Below are positions 692 to 7,179 of a stretch of DNA of 7,179 bases, piece after piece. Source of the stretch: an uncultured delta proteobacterium (GTDB taxonomy: Bacteria > RBG-13-61-14 > DRUE01); the NCBI GenBank assembly GCA_903930515.1, contig CAIYYW010000260.1, positions 1 to 7,179 on the forward strand. Reading direction: 5' to 3'. A model generated the notes under the pieces. It searched no databases, was not told the DNA's origin, and saw only the letters and a list, made by a program, of their open reading frames with translations. The stretch's first letter is position 1, and the number at the start of each line of letters is the position of its first letter. A program made the translations under genes and the position numbers.

Positions 692-720
692 AATATAAGG
701 ATTTCTCCCAAAATAGTCAA
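692..720 (-). promoter_or_regulatory. Sigma70-like promoter of the phospholipase D gene
   Basis: Reading the minus strand, TTGACT (720-715) and TATATT (697-692) are separated by exactly 17 bases. Each matches the housekeeping consensus at five of six positions. The -10 element ends 8 bases before the ATG, so the predicted transcript would begin at or within a base or two of the start codon. The promoter sits in the 45-base gap after the creatininase-like gene, just past a T-rich run (728-719), so the gene can be expressed independently of its upstream neighbours. Confidence 0.6.
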
Positions 721-728
721 AAAGAAAA

Positions 729-1565
729 TCACGGGCGGTTGCGAAGGGTCCAATAACCATAACCGACCAGCTCCCGAAAAGAATGAACATCCAGGGCGTC
801 CCGGATCAGGTAAAATATTTTGGGAGACAAAATTTTCAAGGCGTCGTCATATTTGCGATAGGCTTCTTTAATGGCCGAATCATTTTTATCCCGGAGCGTT
901 TGCTCAACCACTTCGGTCAAATTCTTTACGATTTCAAGAACCGCCTTTTGCCCCAGTTCCGCACTCGCCTTTTTCCGGGGGTCCTGCCCCATTACCCCGA
1001 ACTTTTTCAAGCGCTCCAAGGTTGACAGCCCCTCGGGCATCAGCTCCAGCTTCACCAGCTCCGGCTGAAGCGCCATCATTATTGAGGTTTCCCACATTCC
1101 AGCGTGGTCTCCGTAGTATTGCAGATCAAGGGCGAAGACCTGCTCGGGCGCGCCGATGGCGAAGGGGGGGCCTTTCCGGTTGAAGCGTTCGCATTCCTTC
1201 CGGAGCAGCTTGATCAGGGAGGGCGGATAGTGGCCGGTGAGCAGGACGATGGTTTGGAAACCGAAGCCCTTGAGTTGTTCCAAGGTCTGCCGGACCAGCA
1301 CTTTGATCAGCTTGCGCCGAAAATGGAAGGTGAAGGGAAAGGGCATGGTGTCGGAGGCGGCCCAGAACATAGGCGGGAACAGCACTCCCCCGGTTTTTTC
1401 CGCGCATTTCTCGCAGAGCGCATAGGCCTTAAGCCCGTCCAGACCGAGCGGGTTATGCTCGCCGTGCCATTCCAAAGCCCCGATCGGGACATAGGCCGCC
1501 GGGGCTTTCCCCAACATCCCCCGGATCGGTCCGGGACGGCTGGTTTCAAATTTTATGTAATCCAT
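729..1565 (-). CDS. Creatininase-family metal-dependent hydrolase
   Basis: This 278-residue protein has the family's N-terminal metal motif, PIGALEWHGEHNPLGLD (27-43), supplying E32, H34 and D43. The second motif reads GHYPP (111-115), so H112 is present, but the residue matching Glu122 of Pseudomonas creatininase (GHYEN) is Pro114. A third motif, DHAGMWETS (153-161), supplies H154 and E159, matching His178 and Glu183. Family members hydrolyse cyclic or linear amides and related C-N bonds (creatinine, formamidopyrimidines, the mycofactocin peptide) and one opens an inositol-derived ring. The substrate here is unknown. Residues from about 215 form a charged, partly helical tail that seems longer than usual. 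No signal peptide is seen, so it is cytoplasmic. It starts 30 bases after the glycyl radical enzyme stop. An in-frame TGA five codons upstream fixes the ATG; only a weak GAG precedes it, so co-transcription with the upstream gene is likely. Confidence 0.88.
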   Translation of the reverse strand: MDYIKFETSRPGPIRGMLGKAPAAYVPIGALEWHGEHNPLGLDGLKAYALCEKCAEKTGGVLFPPMFWAASDTMPFPFTFHFRRKLIKVLVRQTLEQLKGFGFQTIVLLTGHYPPSLIKLLRKECERFNRKGPPFAIGAPEQVFALDLQYYGDHAGMWETSIMMALQPELVKLELMPEGLSTLERLKKFGVMGQDPRKKASAELGQKAVLEIVKNLTEVVEQTLRDKNDSAIKEAYRKYDDALKILSPKIFYLIRDALDVHSFRELVGYGYWTLRNRP

Positions 1566-1595
1566 CTTACAAATAACTCATTGCGAATTTTTTCC

Positions 1596-4121
1596 CTATC
1601 CCCGCGGGGAGTCCAGGCCGTGGCTGGTCCGGCAGATGATATCGTTCTGGGTGGAGAGGTCGAGCACGGTGAACAGACCGCTGTATCCCGCGACCCGGAC
1701 CACCAGTCCGCGGTATTGGTCCGGATGCCTTTGGGCGTCTCTCAGGGTGTCGGCGCTGATGATATTATATTGGATATGAGACCCTCCCATCCGGAAGTAT
1801 GCGCGGTTGAGGTCCACAAACTTTTTCAGGTTTTCCCCGCCTTGCAGCAGGTCCGGGTTGAAGGACATATTGAGCACATAGCCGTTGGTGACCTTTTTCC
1901 CGTCCACAGCGGCCACCGAGCGCATCACCGCGGTCGGGCCTTTATTTTCCCTTCCCCGTCCGGGCGAGACCCCGGCGGAGAGGGTTTCTCCGAGCATCCT
2001 TCCGTCCGGGGTGGCCCCGGTCAGGATTCCGAAAACCAGGTGGCTGCTCATAGAATAAATACCCGGCCGGAATTTGCCGTCCCGGAAATTGGGATGGCTG
2101 GAGACTTCCTCGCAATAAATACGCGCGGCCGATGCCGCCATCCGGTCCGGGAGTTGATCATCATTCCCATATTTGGGCGCGCGATGGATCAGCATTTGCC
2201 GGAGATGCTCCGCGTCCTTGAAATTTCCGCGCAAAGCAACCAGCAGCTCGGGCAGGGGGATTTGCTTTTGCTCAAACACCAGGGATTGCACCGCGCAAAG
2301 GGAGTCCGCGACTTCGGCCAACCCCACGGCCTGGGGCCCGGTGAAATTGTAGCGCGCTCCACCGGCGGTGACATCCCTGCCTTTCGCGACGCAGTCGTCA
2401 ATGGTTGACGAGATCAGGGGGGTGGGTTTCAATTCGGCGTGCGCCTGATCCACGAATGACATCGCCTTGGCCATCCGGCCGACAAAAAAGCTCACCTGTT
2501 CCTGATAGGCCTTGAGGATTTCGTCCATACCTTGGAACCGAGCCGCGTCCCCGGTTTTCTTCCCGAGATTCCTGCCGCGCAGGATCGGATAGATTTCCGA
2601 AAGGCCTATTCCGCCGGCTTTGCCGGTTGCCCAAAGATAGTTGAGCATCATCCGGTAATGGCGCAATCGGCCCTTGCCAGAGGCGCCCCGTCGCGGAAGC
2701 AGGTAAGGCCCGAACCGCCGCGCCAGCATTTTCCGGTTCGCGATCAAATCCATCCCGTCTCCGTTATTGAGCGCGAGTTCCAGGCAGCGCGCGATATTCA
2801 CCAGGTTGGAATCGGTGGACCCGAATGAGCTCCCGGAAGTGGTCGGCTCCACGCACCCGACAATGGCGTAATCCCGCGCTTCCGGGGAGGAGATTCCGCT
2901 TTCAATCAGGCCGGGAACAATCACTTGATCGTTGAAAAGCGACATCATCGCCCCGCGGCGGACGGCGTCATAAACCTGGGTGGAGAATTCGGCCGGGGTG
3001 TCGGGATGAAACCTCACTGCGAGATTGGGCGAGACCGCGCGTATATTATCCAGGGCAAAGAGGAAAAGGGAACTGAGCGGATTGGTGGCGTCATTCCCTT
3101 GCCGGTCGGTCCCGCCGATGGTCAGGCTCTGGGCGATGGGCGGTCCGGAGGTGACCGATAGCACCAAGGAATCCAGGACATTGACCACCTCGCTCATCTT
3201 GAGATAGAGGCATTCAATCAACTCTTGCGCCTGGTCCGGGGTGATCTTGCCTTGAGCCAGGTCCTGCCGATAAAAGGGATAGAGGATTTGATCCAGCCGT
3301 CCCGGGCTTATGGCAAAACCGCCGCATTCCAGTTGGCAGATCAGTTGATGGAACCAGACCGACTGGAGCGCCTGATAGAAATCCAGGGGAGGATTTGCCG
3401 GAACCTTTTCGCAATTCCGCGCGATCCGGATCAGTTCCTGCCTTCTTGCCGGATCGTTTTCCAGCTCAGCCAGCCTGCGCGCCTCTTCCGAGAACCGACC
3501 CGAGAAATTGATCGCGGCCTCCGAGGTGATGACCACGGCCTGCCAGAATTCTTTTTGCGCATCCGACCCGGCCCCGGCCGCGAGCCTCTGCTCGGCCTCG
3601 GCGCGGATCCCGGCAAAGCCTTTGGCCAGCAGGTTTGGGTTGCCGACGATGAAATGACCGATGCCGTTTTGAAACTCGGCCTCCACCGTAAAGACCAGCT
3701 TGAACACATCCCGCTTCAGCTCCTTGGGCATCAGGCCGAAGGCGCGCTCCCATAAGGATTTGCCGCGCCAATAAGGAAGCACTTTTTTGATCGCGGCCCG
3801 GTCCGGGCCGCTGATCTGGAACGGCTGGATCGGCCGGTCGGGATAGGTGTCCAACTGGGCTTCCAGGGCAAAGGCCTTGATCTCCGGGAAAAGCGGGGAG
3901 CCTTTGGGCTTGGAAGACCGGTTGCCCACGATCAACTCCTCCGCCCGAATCGCGATGCTGATCTTTTCCAAAAGATGCTTCAGGGCCAATGCGTTCCGGA
4001 TCACCCGGGGCTTTCCCTCGGTCTGCCGGATGGATTCGGTCCAGAGAACCGCGCGCTCCGGGCAGATTTCAAATGGGGCATTGAGGTAGTTTTGTTTCAG
4101 CAACTGGGTGCGGCCGCTCAT
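1596..4121 (-). CDS. Glycyl radical enzyme, pyruvate formate-lyase-like family
   Basis: This 841-residue cytoplasmic protein is full length for the family. The N-terminal PFL-like domain occupies roughly residues 1-690. Its active-site loop reads GCVEP (422-426), giving thiyl-radical Cys423 and general-base candidate Glu425. The C-terminal glycyl radical loop reads RVAGYS (809-814), with Gly812 as radical carrier. Cys-x-Glu is found in eliminases and decarboxylases (glycerol/propanediol dehydratases, choline lyase, hydroxyproline dehydratase, hydroxyphenylacetate decarboxylase), not in formate-lyase itself, which uses Cys-Cys. Asp437 lies 14 residues after the Cys, as does Asp447 of Clostridium glycerol dehydratase. 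The position near that enzyme's His281-Ser282 appears to be Phe269-Ala270, which argues against a plain glycerol dehydratase. The substrate is not assignable. An activating radical-SAM partner is needed and is not in the window. An in-frame TAA directly precedes the ATG, fixing the start. Confidence 0.95.
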   Translation of the reverse strand: MSGRTQLLKQNYLNAPFEICPERAVLWTESIRQTEGKPRVIRNALALKHLLEKISIAIRAEELIVGNRSSKPKGSPLFPEIKAFALEAQLDTYPDRPIQPFQISGPDRAAIKKVLPYWRGKSLWERAFGLMPKELKRDVFKLVFTVEAEFQNGIGHFIVGNPNLLAKGFAGIRAEAEQRLAAGAGSDAQKEFWQAVVITSEAAINFSGRFSEEARRLAELENDPARRQELIRIARNCEKVPANPPLDFYQALQSVWFHQLICQLECGGFAISPGRLDQILYPFYRQDLAQGKITPDQAQELIECLYLKMSEVVNVLDSLVLSVTSGPPIAQSLTIGGTDRQGNDATNPLSSLFLFALDNIRAVSPNLAVRFHPDTPAEFSTQVYDAVRRGAMMSLFNDQVIVPGLIESGISSPEARDYAIVGCVEPTTSGSSFGSTDSNLVNIARCLELALNNGDGMDLIANRKMLARRFGPYLLPRRGASGKGRLRHYRMMLNYLWATGKAGGIGLSEIYPILRGRNLGKKTGDAARFQGMDEILKAYQEQVSFFVGRMAKAMSFVDQAHAELKPTPLISSTIDDCVAKGRDVTAGGARYNFTGPQAVGLAEVADSLCAVQSLVFEQKQIPLPELLVALRGNFKDAEHLRQMLIHRAPKYGNDDQLPDRMAASAARIYCEEVSSHPNFRDGKFRPGIYSMSSHLVFGILTGATPDGRMLGETLSAGVSPGRGRENKGPTAVMRSVAAVDGKKVTNGYVLNMSFNPDLLQGGENLKKFVDLNRAYFRMGGSHIQYNIISADTLRDAQRHPDQYRGLVVRVAGYSGLFTVLDLSTQNDIICRTSHGLDSPRG

Positions 4122-4127
4122 TTAATG

Positions 4128-4157
4128 ATTATATCGCGATTTACTTTGCCGGCGCAA
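4128..4157 (-). promoter_or_regulatory. Promoter with perfect -10 box before the glycyl radical enzyme gene
   Basis: On the minus strand a perfect TATAAT (4133-4128) ends 6 bases before the ATG of the glycyl radical enzyme gene. A weak -35 candidate, TTGCGC (4157-4152), lies 18 bases upstream and matches only at TTG. No Shine-Dalgarno sequence fits between the -10 box and the start. If the box is used, the mRNA is leaderless. The gap to the upstream glycosyltransferase gene is 61 bases, with no convincing terminator in it. Confidence 0.5.
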
Positions 4158-4182: not shown

Positions 4183-6273
4183 TCAATCCGGAAGGGGGAT
4201 TGGGGAAAAAATCAGGGAATCCAGTTGGAACCATCCGGGAAAGCTGATCGGGTCCAGCCGGATTCCGGTGATTTTAAGGCTGCGCAGCCAGGAAAGGTTT
4301 TGGTCCACCCGAATCCGGTAGGTATGGAATCGGCCGTCGGCGCGGACCGGGAAGCAGATCTGGTTCTGGGCCTGCCATTGCATCTCCTGCTGATCTTTGG
4401 AGCTGGTCCAGAACAGGCACCCTTGCTGCTGCGGGGCAGGCAGGTAATCTTTTTTCTCAATCCGCATCCTGAATTTCAGCTCCGAAACCGAAAGCGCCAG
4501 GGTTGAAAGCGGGAGCGAGATCAGATAGGGATCATCGTTATGGGAGTGGAAGGTATAAAAGTCGGCCAAATGCGCCGGGGAGTTCAGCTCAAGCCCGGGA
4601 GAAAGCTTCCAGTCCAAGGGATAGTTCCGCTTTCGGAACTCATAGCTCGGGAACAGCATCGGCCTCTGCTGATGGTTTTCCTGCAAAAACCTCCGGTCTT
4701 GCGCCAGCCGAATCACCTGGTTGGTAATGTCCTCCAGTTTCCCTTCCCTCCATTCCAAGACCTGCGATTGCTGGTCGTGGGTGACGGCAAGGGGAAGATC
4801 CGCGGGCGGGGACACCGTAACCATAGCTTTTTTCGGCTCGGAATATTGCAGTTCCAGCTCCGGCCACCAGGGCTTCCGTTCCTGGTAGAGCAACACGGTT
4901 TCCGGGCTGACCCAGGCCAGCGAGGGCCTCTCGGATGGAATAATAATCATCCGGTCCAGAAGGGAAGGCTGATATACCTTGAACATAGTGTCTAAATAAT
5001 AAAACTCAAAGCTCAGGCCGGTAATATAAATCCTGGCCGGCGATCCGGCTCCCGGCTCCTCGCCCACGGCCTTGAGGGTTGCCTCCCGGACTTTTTGGTA
5101 TTCCCGGCATCGGTCCGAGAAACTTTTCAGTTCGGAGAAATCGGTCCTTCCGTAAGAAACCAGGATCAGGCCGAAGAGGGAGAGGCTGATTGCCGATAGA
5201 TAGCGGTTCCTGATTTGAGAGAAAATACCCGCGAAGACCATCGCCATTCCGGCCAGGCCGAAATAAAACAGCCTCGCTTCCAGGAAGTAGAGCATCTGGG
5301 AAAGGTTCCAGAGCGGGACCAGCGCCAGGGCCATCCAGCCGATGCCGAGCAGGAGCAGACGCGGACGCCGGAAGATTGAGACCAGGGCGAGGATACCGAA
5401 GCCGAGGAAAGCCCCGAACAAAAGCCAGAACCAGACGGTTTTAATTCCAAGATGCCAGAACAGGTAATCGTTGAAGGCGCGGGACAATACTTTGGGCAGA
5501 TGATAGCTCAGGCGGGGAATGATAAACGACCAGGATACTTCCAAAGGCTCGTATCCGCCGATGAACCCGATCCGCCTGACCCGGAACCAGAGATAAAGGG
5601 CGAGCGCGGATATAAACAGGCTTCCGATCAGACCGGCGTCCAGGAACCGCTTGAGGGTTGACCTGGGCCCGGGCTGGAACAGGGCCAGCAGGAAGATGAA
5701 TCCGGGAAGGAGGAACGCGGTTTCCTTGGAGAGATAGGCCAGGAAACTTAAGGCCAATGCGATCAGTATTTTCAGCCACCATAGTTTCCGGAAAACGATG
5801 GCGTGGAGGGCGAGGACCAGGGAGAGGGTTCCGAAAAATACCATCAGCAAATCCGCGCGGCAGGAAATCCAGGACGGGGTGAGAATGGAGATCGGATGCA
5901 GGGCATAGAACACCCCGGCCAGAACACTGATCCATTTCTTATGCGGTTCCTCGTCCAGCATCAGGTGGATTAAATAGCTGACCAGCAGGCAGTTCAGGGA
6001 ATGGAGCAAAAGGTCCGCCAAGTGGTAGCCGAATGGGTTAAGGTTGAAGAGTCTGAAATAAACCGTATCCGTGAGCATCACCATTGGCCGCCAGAACACC
6101 TTTCCGAAAAATAAATGCCAGGTCGCGGCAAAAGGGTCGCTTAACAGATTGGCAAAGGCGAGATGGAGGAAATCGTCGGCGTAGAAAAAATTCTTGAGTT
6201 GCGGGGCCAGCAAGATTAAAGTGATCGCCAGTAACAAGCTCCAGACCAGAAACCATTGACTGATCTTTTTCAC
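4183..6273 (-). CDS. GT-C membrane glycosyltransferase with C-terminal beta-rich domain
   Basis: This 696-residue protein has about ten or more hydrophobic segments in residues 5-375, then a soluble tail. The membrane part shows the GT-C pattern: an Asp pair in the first external loop (D33-D34), WRP (61-63), NPFGYH (79-84), CRAD (138-141), LSKE (181-184) and LEARLFYF (331-338). These match the family that uses polyprenyl-phosphate sugars to glycosylate proteins or envelope glycans outside the membrane, related to GT39/TMTC-type mannosyltransferases but without their TPR repeats. Donor and acceptor are unknown. Residues about 570-696 resemble a beta-sandwich found in many polysaccharide-related proteins (DGRFHTYRI at 646-654, IRLDP at 671-675, a closing LDSL at 684-687), possibly glycan-binding. 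Translation begins at GTG; an in-frame TAA five codons upstream (6288-6286) and a membrane segment right after it support this start. Confidence 0.85.
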   Translation of the reverse strand: MKKISQWFLVWSLLLAITLILLAPQLKNFFYADDFLHLAFANLLSDPFAATWHLFFGKVFWRPMVMLTDTVYFRLFNLNPFGYHLADLLLHSLNCLLVSYLIHLMLDEEPHKKWISVLAGVFYALHPISILTPSWISCRADLLMVFFGTLSLVLALHAIVFRKLWWLKILIALALSFLAYLSKETAFLLPGFIFLLALFQPGPRSTLKRFLDAGLIGSLFISALALYLWFRVRRIGFIGGYEPLEVSWSFIIPRLSYHLPKVLSRAFNDYLFWHLGIKTVWFWLLFGAFLGFGILALVSIFRRPRLLLLGIGWMALALVPLWNLSQMLYFLEARLFYFGLAGMAMVFAGIFSQIRNRYLSAISLSLFGLILVSYGRTDFSELKSFSDRCREYQKVREATLKAVGEEPGAGSPARIYITGLSFEFYYLDTMFKVYQPSLLDRMIIIPSERPSLAWVSPETVLLYQERKPWWPELELQYSEPKKAMVTVSPPADLPLAVTHDQQSQVLEWREGKLEDITNQVIRLAQDRRFLQENHQQRPMLFPSYEFRKRNYPLDWKLSPGLELNSPAHLADFYTFHSHNDDPYLISLPLSTLALSVSELKFRMRIEKKDYLPAPQQQGCLFWTSSKDQQEMQWQAQNQICFPVRADGRFHTYRIRVDQNLSWLRSLKITGIRLDPISFPGWFQLDSLIFSPIPLPD

Positions 6274-6537: not shown

Positions 6538-7179
6538 TCACAGGCCAAATCCGAACACATCCGCCGGAACATTGTAATTAGTCCCAATCCCAGTCCCAAT
6601 CTGACCAAAATAATTACCGCCCCAGCACTTTACTCCACCGCCGGACATAAGGGCGCAGGTATGGAACATACCAGCCGAGATTGCGCTTACCCCTGAAGCC
6701 AGGCCGTAAACATTAACCGGGACATTGCTATCAGAAGTTGTTCCATTTCCAAGTTCACCAAAATAATTCTCCCCCCAGCACTTAACTCCACCGCTTATGG
6801 TAAGGGCACAGGTATGGCTAGACCCACCCGAGATTGCGCTTACGCCTGAAGCCAGGCCGGAAACATCCACCGAAACATTACTATCAGCAGTTGTCCCATT
6901 CCCAAGTTGACCATAATCGTTCCACCCCCAGCACTTTATTCCACCGCCGGAGGTAAGGGCACAGGTATGAATTTCACCAGCCGAGATTGCAGATCCTTTG
7001 CTCAATCCACAATCACAATCCTCCGGACAGCTATCTCCATCCTCAAAGTAAGGATTGCAAACCGTATCCGGGCAAGCGCCGGGACAATCTTGCGCACAGG
7101 TATTTACATCCTCTCCCGCATAATAATTGCAAACCATATCTCCGCAAGTTCCGGGACAATCCTGGCCACAGGTATCTGG
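6538..7179 (-). CDS. RCC1-repeat protein with Cys-rich repeats, C-terminal part
   Basis: The frame is open from the right edge to a TGA at 6538-6540, giving 213 codons; the N-terminus, with any signal peptide, lies outside. Two consecutive modules are visible. The first (about 55 residues) is Cys- and Asp-rich, with repeated TCxQDCPG and VCN words. The second is three tandem 51-residue RCC1-type units, each with HTCAL, KCWG and GQLGNGT-like words, ending exactly at the third unit boundary. RCC1 units form beta-propeller blades; bacterial versions are often exported and thought to serve in adhesion or binding. The many conserved Cys (in HTC and KCW of each unit) suggest disulphides and hence an extracytoplasmic location; this is inference. 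The function is unknown. Base composition is somewhat less G+C-rich than in the enzyme genes downstream. A 264-base gap separates it from the glycosyltransferase gene, so it is probably a separate unit. Confidence 0.82.
6541..6999 (-). repeat. Three tandem 153-base RCC1-encoding repeats
   Basis: The units are 6999-6847, 6846-6694 and 6693-6541, each exactly 153 bases (51 codons). The shared word CAGCACTT recurs on the plus strand at 6623, 6776 and 6929, confirming the period. Units are strongly similar at the DNA level as well as in protein. The unit nearest the stop is the most diverged, reading [11 protein letters not shown] where the others read LGNGTT-DSNV. Confidence 0.9.
7015..7173 (-). 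repeat. Cys/Asp-rich tandem repeats, about 24 residues each
   Basis: Two near-identical units (7173-7102, 24 codons; 7101-7033, 23 codons) and a partial third (7032-7015) encode TCxQDCPGxCxDxVCN followed by an acidic stretch (GEDVN or EDGD). This resembles the Cys-rich, acidic repeats common in bacterial surface proteins. Disulphide formation and calcium binding by the acidic residues are possible but inferred. The array probably continues beyond the right edge. Confidence 0.75.

What the first reader, a model, noticed from the sequence alone, without database searches (positions are those of the whole stretch)
729..4121. Glycyl radical enzyme paired with a creatininase-like hydrolase, without an activase
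The two genes are 30 bases apart on the same strand, and the second has no good promoter of its own, so they are probably co-transcribed. Glycyl radical enzymes usually sit beside their radical-SAM activating enzyme; here both flanks in this window are other genes. A hydrolase of C-N or ring bonds next to a radical C-X lyase suggests a two-step anaerobic degradation of a nitrogen-containing or cyclic compound that I cannot match to a described pathway.
Basis: partly seen in the sequence, partly recalled or inferred. Interest (0 to 1): 0.6.

Follow-up and report, generated by a model that had tools for sequence, protein, structure and literature searches.

The report
Orphan radical enzyme beside a hydrolase
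A bacterium from a scarcely sampled phylum carries an uncharacterised oxygen-sensitive radical enzyme gene directly followed by a metal-dependent hydrolase gene; the pair is real and shared with a sister species, but I saw it nowhere else, and the proposed new degradation pathway is not shown.

Summary
A complete glycyl radical enzyme (GRE, 841 aa, 4121-1596, minus strand) is followed after 30 nt by a creatininase-superfamily protein (278 aa, 1565-729). The GRE has the eliminase CXE motif (C423-V424-E425) and the radical glycine G812. It is 42% identical to glycerol dehydratase, its best solved relative, but lacks several of that enzyme's substrate-pocket residues and carries a ~55-residue insert after the Cys loop. 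It clears no specific NCBIfam model, and nothing found outside its genus exceeds 45% identity: an unassigned eliminase cluster. The phylum has only three held genomes. The genus-mate keeps the pair (70/71% identity, dN/dS ~0.20 for both), and there both lie in one open frame of 1130 codons. That join may be a real fusion or a one-base indel. The third genome keeps the hydrolase alone and only a 118-residue broken GRE remnant elsewhere, so the hydrolase does not need the GRE. I saw no GRE-creatininase adjacency in 383 further genomes. No activase is visible on the short contig; two occur elsewhere in the genome beside other GREs. The 'two-step pathway' is possible but unsupported. A modest find: a new GRE subfamily with a genus-level partner.

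The parts
1596..4121 (-). glycyl radical enzyme, eliminase type, 841 aa; CXE motif C423-V424-E425, radical glycine G812
   Evidence: Pfam PFL-like and Gly_radical; NCBIfam TIGR01774 788 bits, above its 678 cut-off, no specific equivalog above cut-off; residue map to 1r8w; 70% identical in G001
2577..2750 (-). insert of about 55-57 codons (residues ~458-515) after the Cys loop, also in G001 and absent from the other 23 compared GREs (one has an unrelated shorter insert)
   Evidence: alignments; coordinates follow from residue numbers
729..1565 (-). creatininase-superfamily hydrolase, 278 aa, with a C-terminal extension shared in this phylum
   Evidence: Pfam PF02633 2.7e-33; motif residues E32, H34, D43, H112 and DHAGMWETS aligned with creatininase; 71% in G001, 62% in G002
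1566..1598 (-). TAG stop plus 30-nt gap, in frame with the hydrolase, with a second in-frame stop TGA; in G001 the equivalent stretch has no stop
4128..4133 (-). perfect TATAAT, 6 nt upstream of the GRE ATG; the same hexamer lies 5 or 8 nt upstream of the two possible G001 starts; candidate -10 box, possibly leaderless
   Evidence: function is inference
692..720 (-). promoter-like site TTGACT-17-TATATT before the downstream PLD-domain gene, suggesting the unit ends after the hydrolase
   Evidence: 10 of 12 matches

Best explanation
A two-gene unit of one bacterial genus. Gene 1 is a GRE eliminase of unassigned substrate: an activase supplied in trans puts a radical on G812, it moves to C423, the thiyl radical abstracts H from a small hydroxylated substrate held by E425, and a vicinal leaving group (OH, amine or similar) is eliminated to give a carbonyl product. 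Gene 2 is a metal-dependent creatininase-superfamily hydrolase that is co-expressed but can also work without the GRE, as its lone retention in G002 shows. The two may act on the same compound (hydrolase releasing the GRE substrate, or opening its product), but that link is inference. Shown by sequence: the families, catalytic motifs, conservation and adjacency. Inferred: activity, activation in trans, promoter, shared pathway.
For: CXE is the conserved eliminase motif (PMC8473560 and PMC7077986), and the window has C423-V424-E425 and G812 aligned with glycerol dehydratase C433, E435 and G763. A single Cys in the loop argues against PFL chemistry. Pocket residues differ (H281 to F, S282 to A, Y339 to A), arguing against glycerol. 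NCBIfam specific models all fall far below cut-off: sulfopropanediol dehydratase 591 of 1000, Hyp dehydratase 548 of 1100, CutC 466 of 1050. Nearest outside relatives 41-45%, below the ~60% edge used to separate GRE functions (PMC6453916). dN/dS about 0.20 for both genes. Same order and strand in G001. Two activases in the genome: C211, with CxxxCxxC and ferredoxin clusters, and C117. No BMC shell genes in the three genomes.
Against: Activation in trans is untested and GREs usually have a dedicated activase; one could lie beyond the contig edge. The G002 remnant shows the GRE is dispensable in the phylum. No transporter, dehydrogenase or regulator joins the unit, so no substrate clue exists.
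Confidence: 0.55

Rival explanations
1. The two enzymes are consecutive steps of one anaerobic degradation route.
For: Adjacency with a 30-nt gap or joined frames in both genomes of the genus, similar selective constraint.
Against: The hydrolase persists alone in G002 with a broken GRE elsewhere; its nearest outside relatives (36-41% identity) have no GRE beside them; the GRE's nearest relatives have no creatininase beside them.
Confidence: 0.3
2. The pair is one bifunctional protein, as in the G001 open frame of 1130 codons, and the window's copy has been split by stops.
For: G001 reads through a 19-residue linker without a stop.
Against: G001 has a TAA one base out of frame where the window has its TAG, so a single indel, natural or an assembly error, explains the join; G001 has AAGGTG 8 nt before the hydrolase ATG, a plausible separate ribosome site; a 19-codon stretch is stop-free by chance about 40% of the time; no other compared GRE carries a C-terminal domain.
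Confidence: 0.15
3. The GRE is a decaying gene in this phylum and the pair is a passing neighbourhood.
For: Broken 118-residue remnant in G002; no adjacent activase.
Against: Intact catalytic motifs and dN/dS about 0.20 between window and G001.
Confidence: 0.12

Closest known systems
B12-independent glycerol dehydratase (PDB 1r8w)
   Same: 42% identity over 766 aligned positions; Cys433, Glu435, Asp447, His164 and radical Gly763 equivalents kept
   Different: H281, S282 and Y339 equivalents replaced by F, A and A, F333 equivalent by T; ~55-residue insert; no adjacent activase on this contig
Uncharacterised GREs of the G026/G173/G311 family
   Same: closest held sequences outside the genus, 44-45% identity; no activase among the adjacent genes examined
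   Different: no insert, lack the Asp437 equivalent, no creatininase neighbour
Creatininase superfamily (creatininase, MftE, IolN)
   Same: Pfam family and metal-motif positions
   Different: 64, 48 and 37 bits against cut-offs of 235, 172 and 245; Pro where creatininase has Glu122

Membership tests
glycyl radical enzyme superfamily | C-terminal glycyl radical domain with RVxGYx motif and catalytic Cys loop | tested here: met
GRE eliminase class | CXE motif in the Cys loop | tested here: met
   C423-V424-E425; definition from PMC8473560 and PMC7077986
glycyl radical enzyme superfamily | activation by a cognate radical-SAM activase | tested here: inconclusive
   none on the contig; two activases elsewhere sharing contigs with other GREs
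glycerol dehydratase | substrate-pocket residues H281 and S282 (roles from memory) | tested here: not met
   F269 and A270
pyruvate formate-lyase | two adjacent catalytic cysteines (from memory) | tested here: not met
   GCVEP, single Cys; TIGR01255 148 bits against 994
HpfG/HpsG, HypD, CutC, indoleacetate and hydroxyphenylacetate decarboxylases | NCBIfam equivalog cut-off | tested here: not met
   all below cut-off
creatininase superfamily | PF02633 above gathering score | tested here: met
   115.8 bits against 31.3
creatinine amidohydrolase, MftE, IolN | NCBIfam equivalog cut-offs | tested here: not met
GRE microcompartment loci | BMC shell proteins in the genome | tested here: not met
   no PF00936 match in G000, G001 or G002

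The most novel reading that the evidence does not exclude
In this genus a GRE eliminase is naturally fused, or translationally locked, at its C-terminus to a creatininase-type hydrolase. This would be the first GRE I know of with an enzymatic domain behind its glycyl radical loop, channelling a radical elimination into a hydrolysis and activated in trans.
Probability: 0.15. Interest if true: 0.6.

Novelty: new member of a known kind. Interest (0 to 1): 0.3.

Why it matters
If active, it adds an eliminase cluster with a changed pocket and a unique insert to the GRE family, from a phylum represented here by three genomes. The joined frame in the sister species, if real, would test whether the glycyl radical domain tolerates a C-terminal fusion and still reaches its activase. 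If neither holds, it is an ordinary orphan GRE with a hydrolase neighbour.

Tried and rejected
Structure prediction of the hydrolase from a single sequence gave pLDDT 40 and was not used. A genome-contig scan found only one distant GRE (30%). A literature search for GRE together with creatininase found no paper; searches for creatininase-family mechanism papers found none in the library. Stop-codon readthrough or recoding in the window was rejected because two different stops (TAG, TGA) lie in the linker.

Full report
OBSERVATION. The window is a complete 7179-bp contig (C260) of a draft genome of 3.65 Mb in 401 contigs, 93% complete. All main genes are on the minus strand. A GRE of 841 aa (4121-1596) is followed after a TAG stop and 30 nt by a 278-aa creatininase-superfamily protein (1565-729). 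No activase is in the window, but only 728 bp lie downstream of the pair.

THE GRE. It clears the general model TIGR01774 (788 bits, cut-off 678) and none of the specific models. Its best solved relative is B12-independent glycerol dehydratase 1r8w, 42% identical over 766 aligned positions. Mapping residues: C433, E435, D447, H164 and G763 correspond to C423, E425, D437, H156 and G812, all kept; H281, S282 and Y339 correspond to F269, A270 and A330, changed; F333 falls at T324, counted by hand on the same alignment. The CXE motif is the conserved feature of GRE eliminases (PMC8473560, PMC7077986). The site of GD Phe333 is Ser334 in HypD, where it helps bind a carboxylate; a Thr here hints at a polar or acidic substrate, which is speculation. 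An insert of about 55 residues after the Cys loop is shared with the genus-mate and absent from the other GREs compared, one of which has an unrelated shorter insert. The nearest GREs outside the genus are 44-45% identical, and in a tree the window and G001 form their own pair with 100/100 support, with no resolved sister group. GRE functions were separated in a published network at an edge of about 60% identity (PMC6453916), so this is an unassigned cluster.

THE HYDROLASE. PF02633 at 2.7e-33. E32, H34, D43 and H112 align with the creatininase motif, and DHAGMWETS matches creatininase EHGGVFETS; the position of creatininase Glu122 is Pro (the metal roles are from memory). Specific models for creatininase, MftE and IolN are far below cut-off. 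The genome has two further superfamily members.

COMPARATIVE EVIDENCE. The phylum has three held genomes. In the genus-mate G001 both genes are present (70% and 71% identity) in the same order. Both show dN/dS near 0.20 by NG86 (0.229/1.142 and 0.237/1.157); dS above 1 is near saturation, so the ratio is approximate. In G002 (same order) the hydrolase stands alone at 61-66% identity behind a NYN-domain gene, and the GRE survives only as about 118 N-terminal residues at 57% identity on another contig, followed by stops. So the hydrolase is retained without this GRE. In 386 genomes including these three, 7 others had a hydrolase match at E 1e-25 or better; the regions fetched around 6 of them contained no GRE, and the regions around the GRE's nearest relatives contained no creatininase. 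A joint query over the same 386 genomes showed the two families on one contig only in the window's genome and G001. Limits: at most four candidates per genome were scored and the list was cut near E 5e-12.

THE JOINED FRAME. In G001 the GRE and hydrolase lie in one open frame of 1130 codons with a 19-residue linker. The window keeps the same frame but has TAG and TGA in it. Aligning the junctions shows that G001 has a TAA one base out of frame just where the window has TAG. A one-base indel, natural or from assembly, therefore suffices to explain the join. A stop-free stretch of 19 codons is also expected about 40% of the time by chance ((61/64)^19), and an AAGGTG lies just upstream of the hydrolase ATG in G001. 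I give a true fusion or obligate coupling about 15%.

EXPRESSION. A perfect TATAAT lies 6 nt before the GRE ATG and 5 or 8 nt before the alternative G001 starts. TATAAT occurs 3 times in the window against 1.3 expected, so the window alone is weak evidence; the shared position is the better argument. This suggests a leaderless or near-leaderless GRE message. The downstream PLD gene has its own promoter-like site.

ACTIVATION. The genome has five GRE loci and two activases above the TIGR02494 cut-off. Each activase shares a contig with another GRE: on C211 about 30 bp away, on C117 about 1.8 kb away. G001 likewise has two. Activation in trans is the simplest reading but is untested. No microcompartment genes occur.

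VERDICT. Real, modestly unusual, not a demonstrated pathway. The GRE cluster and its insert are new members of a known kind; the pairing is a genus-level feature; the function of both proteins is inferred from family.

Noticed in passing
L055:8193-8555 (G002:C34): Truncated GRE remnant of about 118 residues, 57% identical to the window's GRE N-terminus, followed by stops; the rest was not found in that genome.
   Followed up: yes
window 6538-7179 (minus): RCC1-repeat protein with a Cys-rich repeat region, cut by the contig end.
   Followed up: no
window 4183-6273 (minus): 696-aa multi-spanning membrane protein with no Pfam match; looks like a glycosyltransferase-type membrane protein by eye.
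   Followed up: no
L027 (G000:C377) 5456-7345: Another GRE in this genome whose open frame (645 aa) lacks the N-terminal ~150 residues seen in its G001 counterpart (L059, 799 aa), with no activase found on its contig.
   Followed up: partly
L078:8134-10311 (G258): A creatininase relative sits directly downstream of a radical SAM/SPASM gene, loosely recalling mycofactocin-type pairings.
   Followed up: partly
genomes G026, G173, G311: One rare phylum with three held genomes carries many GRE genes per genome (up to 16 matching pieces in one genome).
   Followed up: partly
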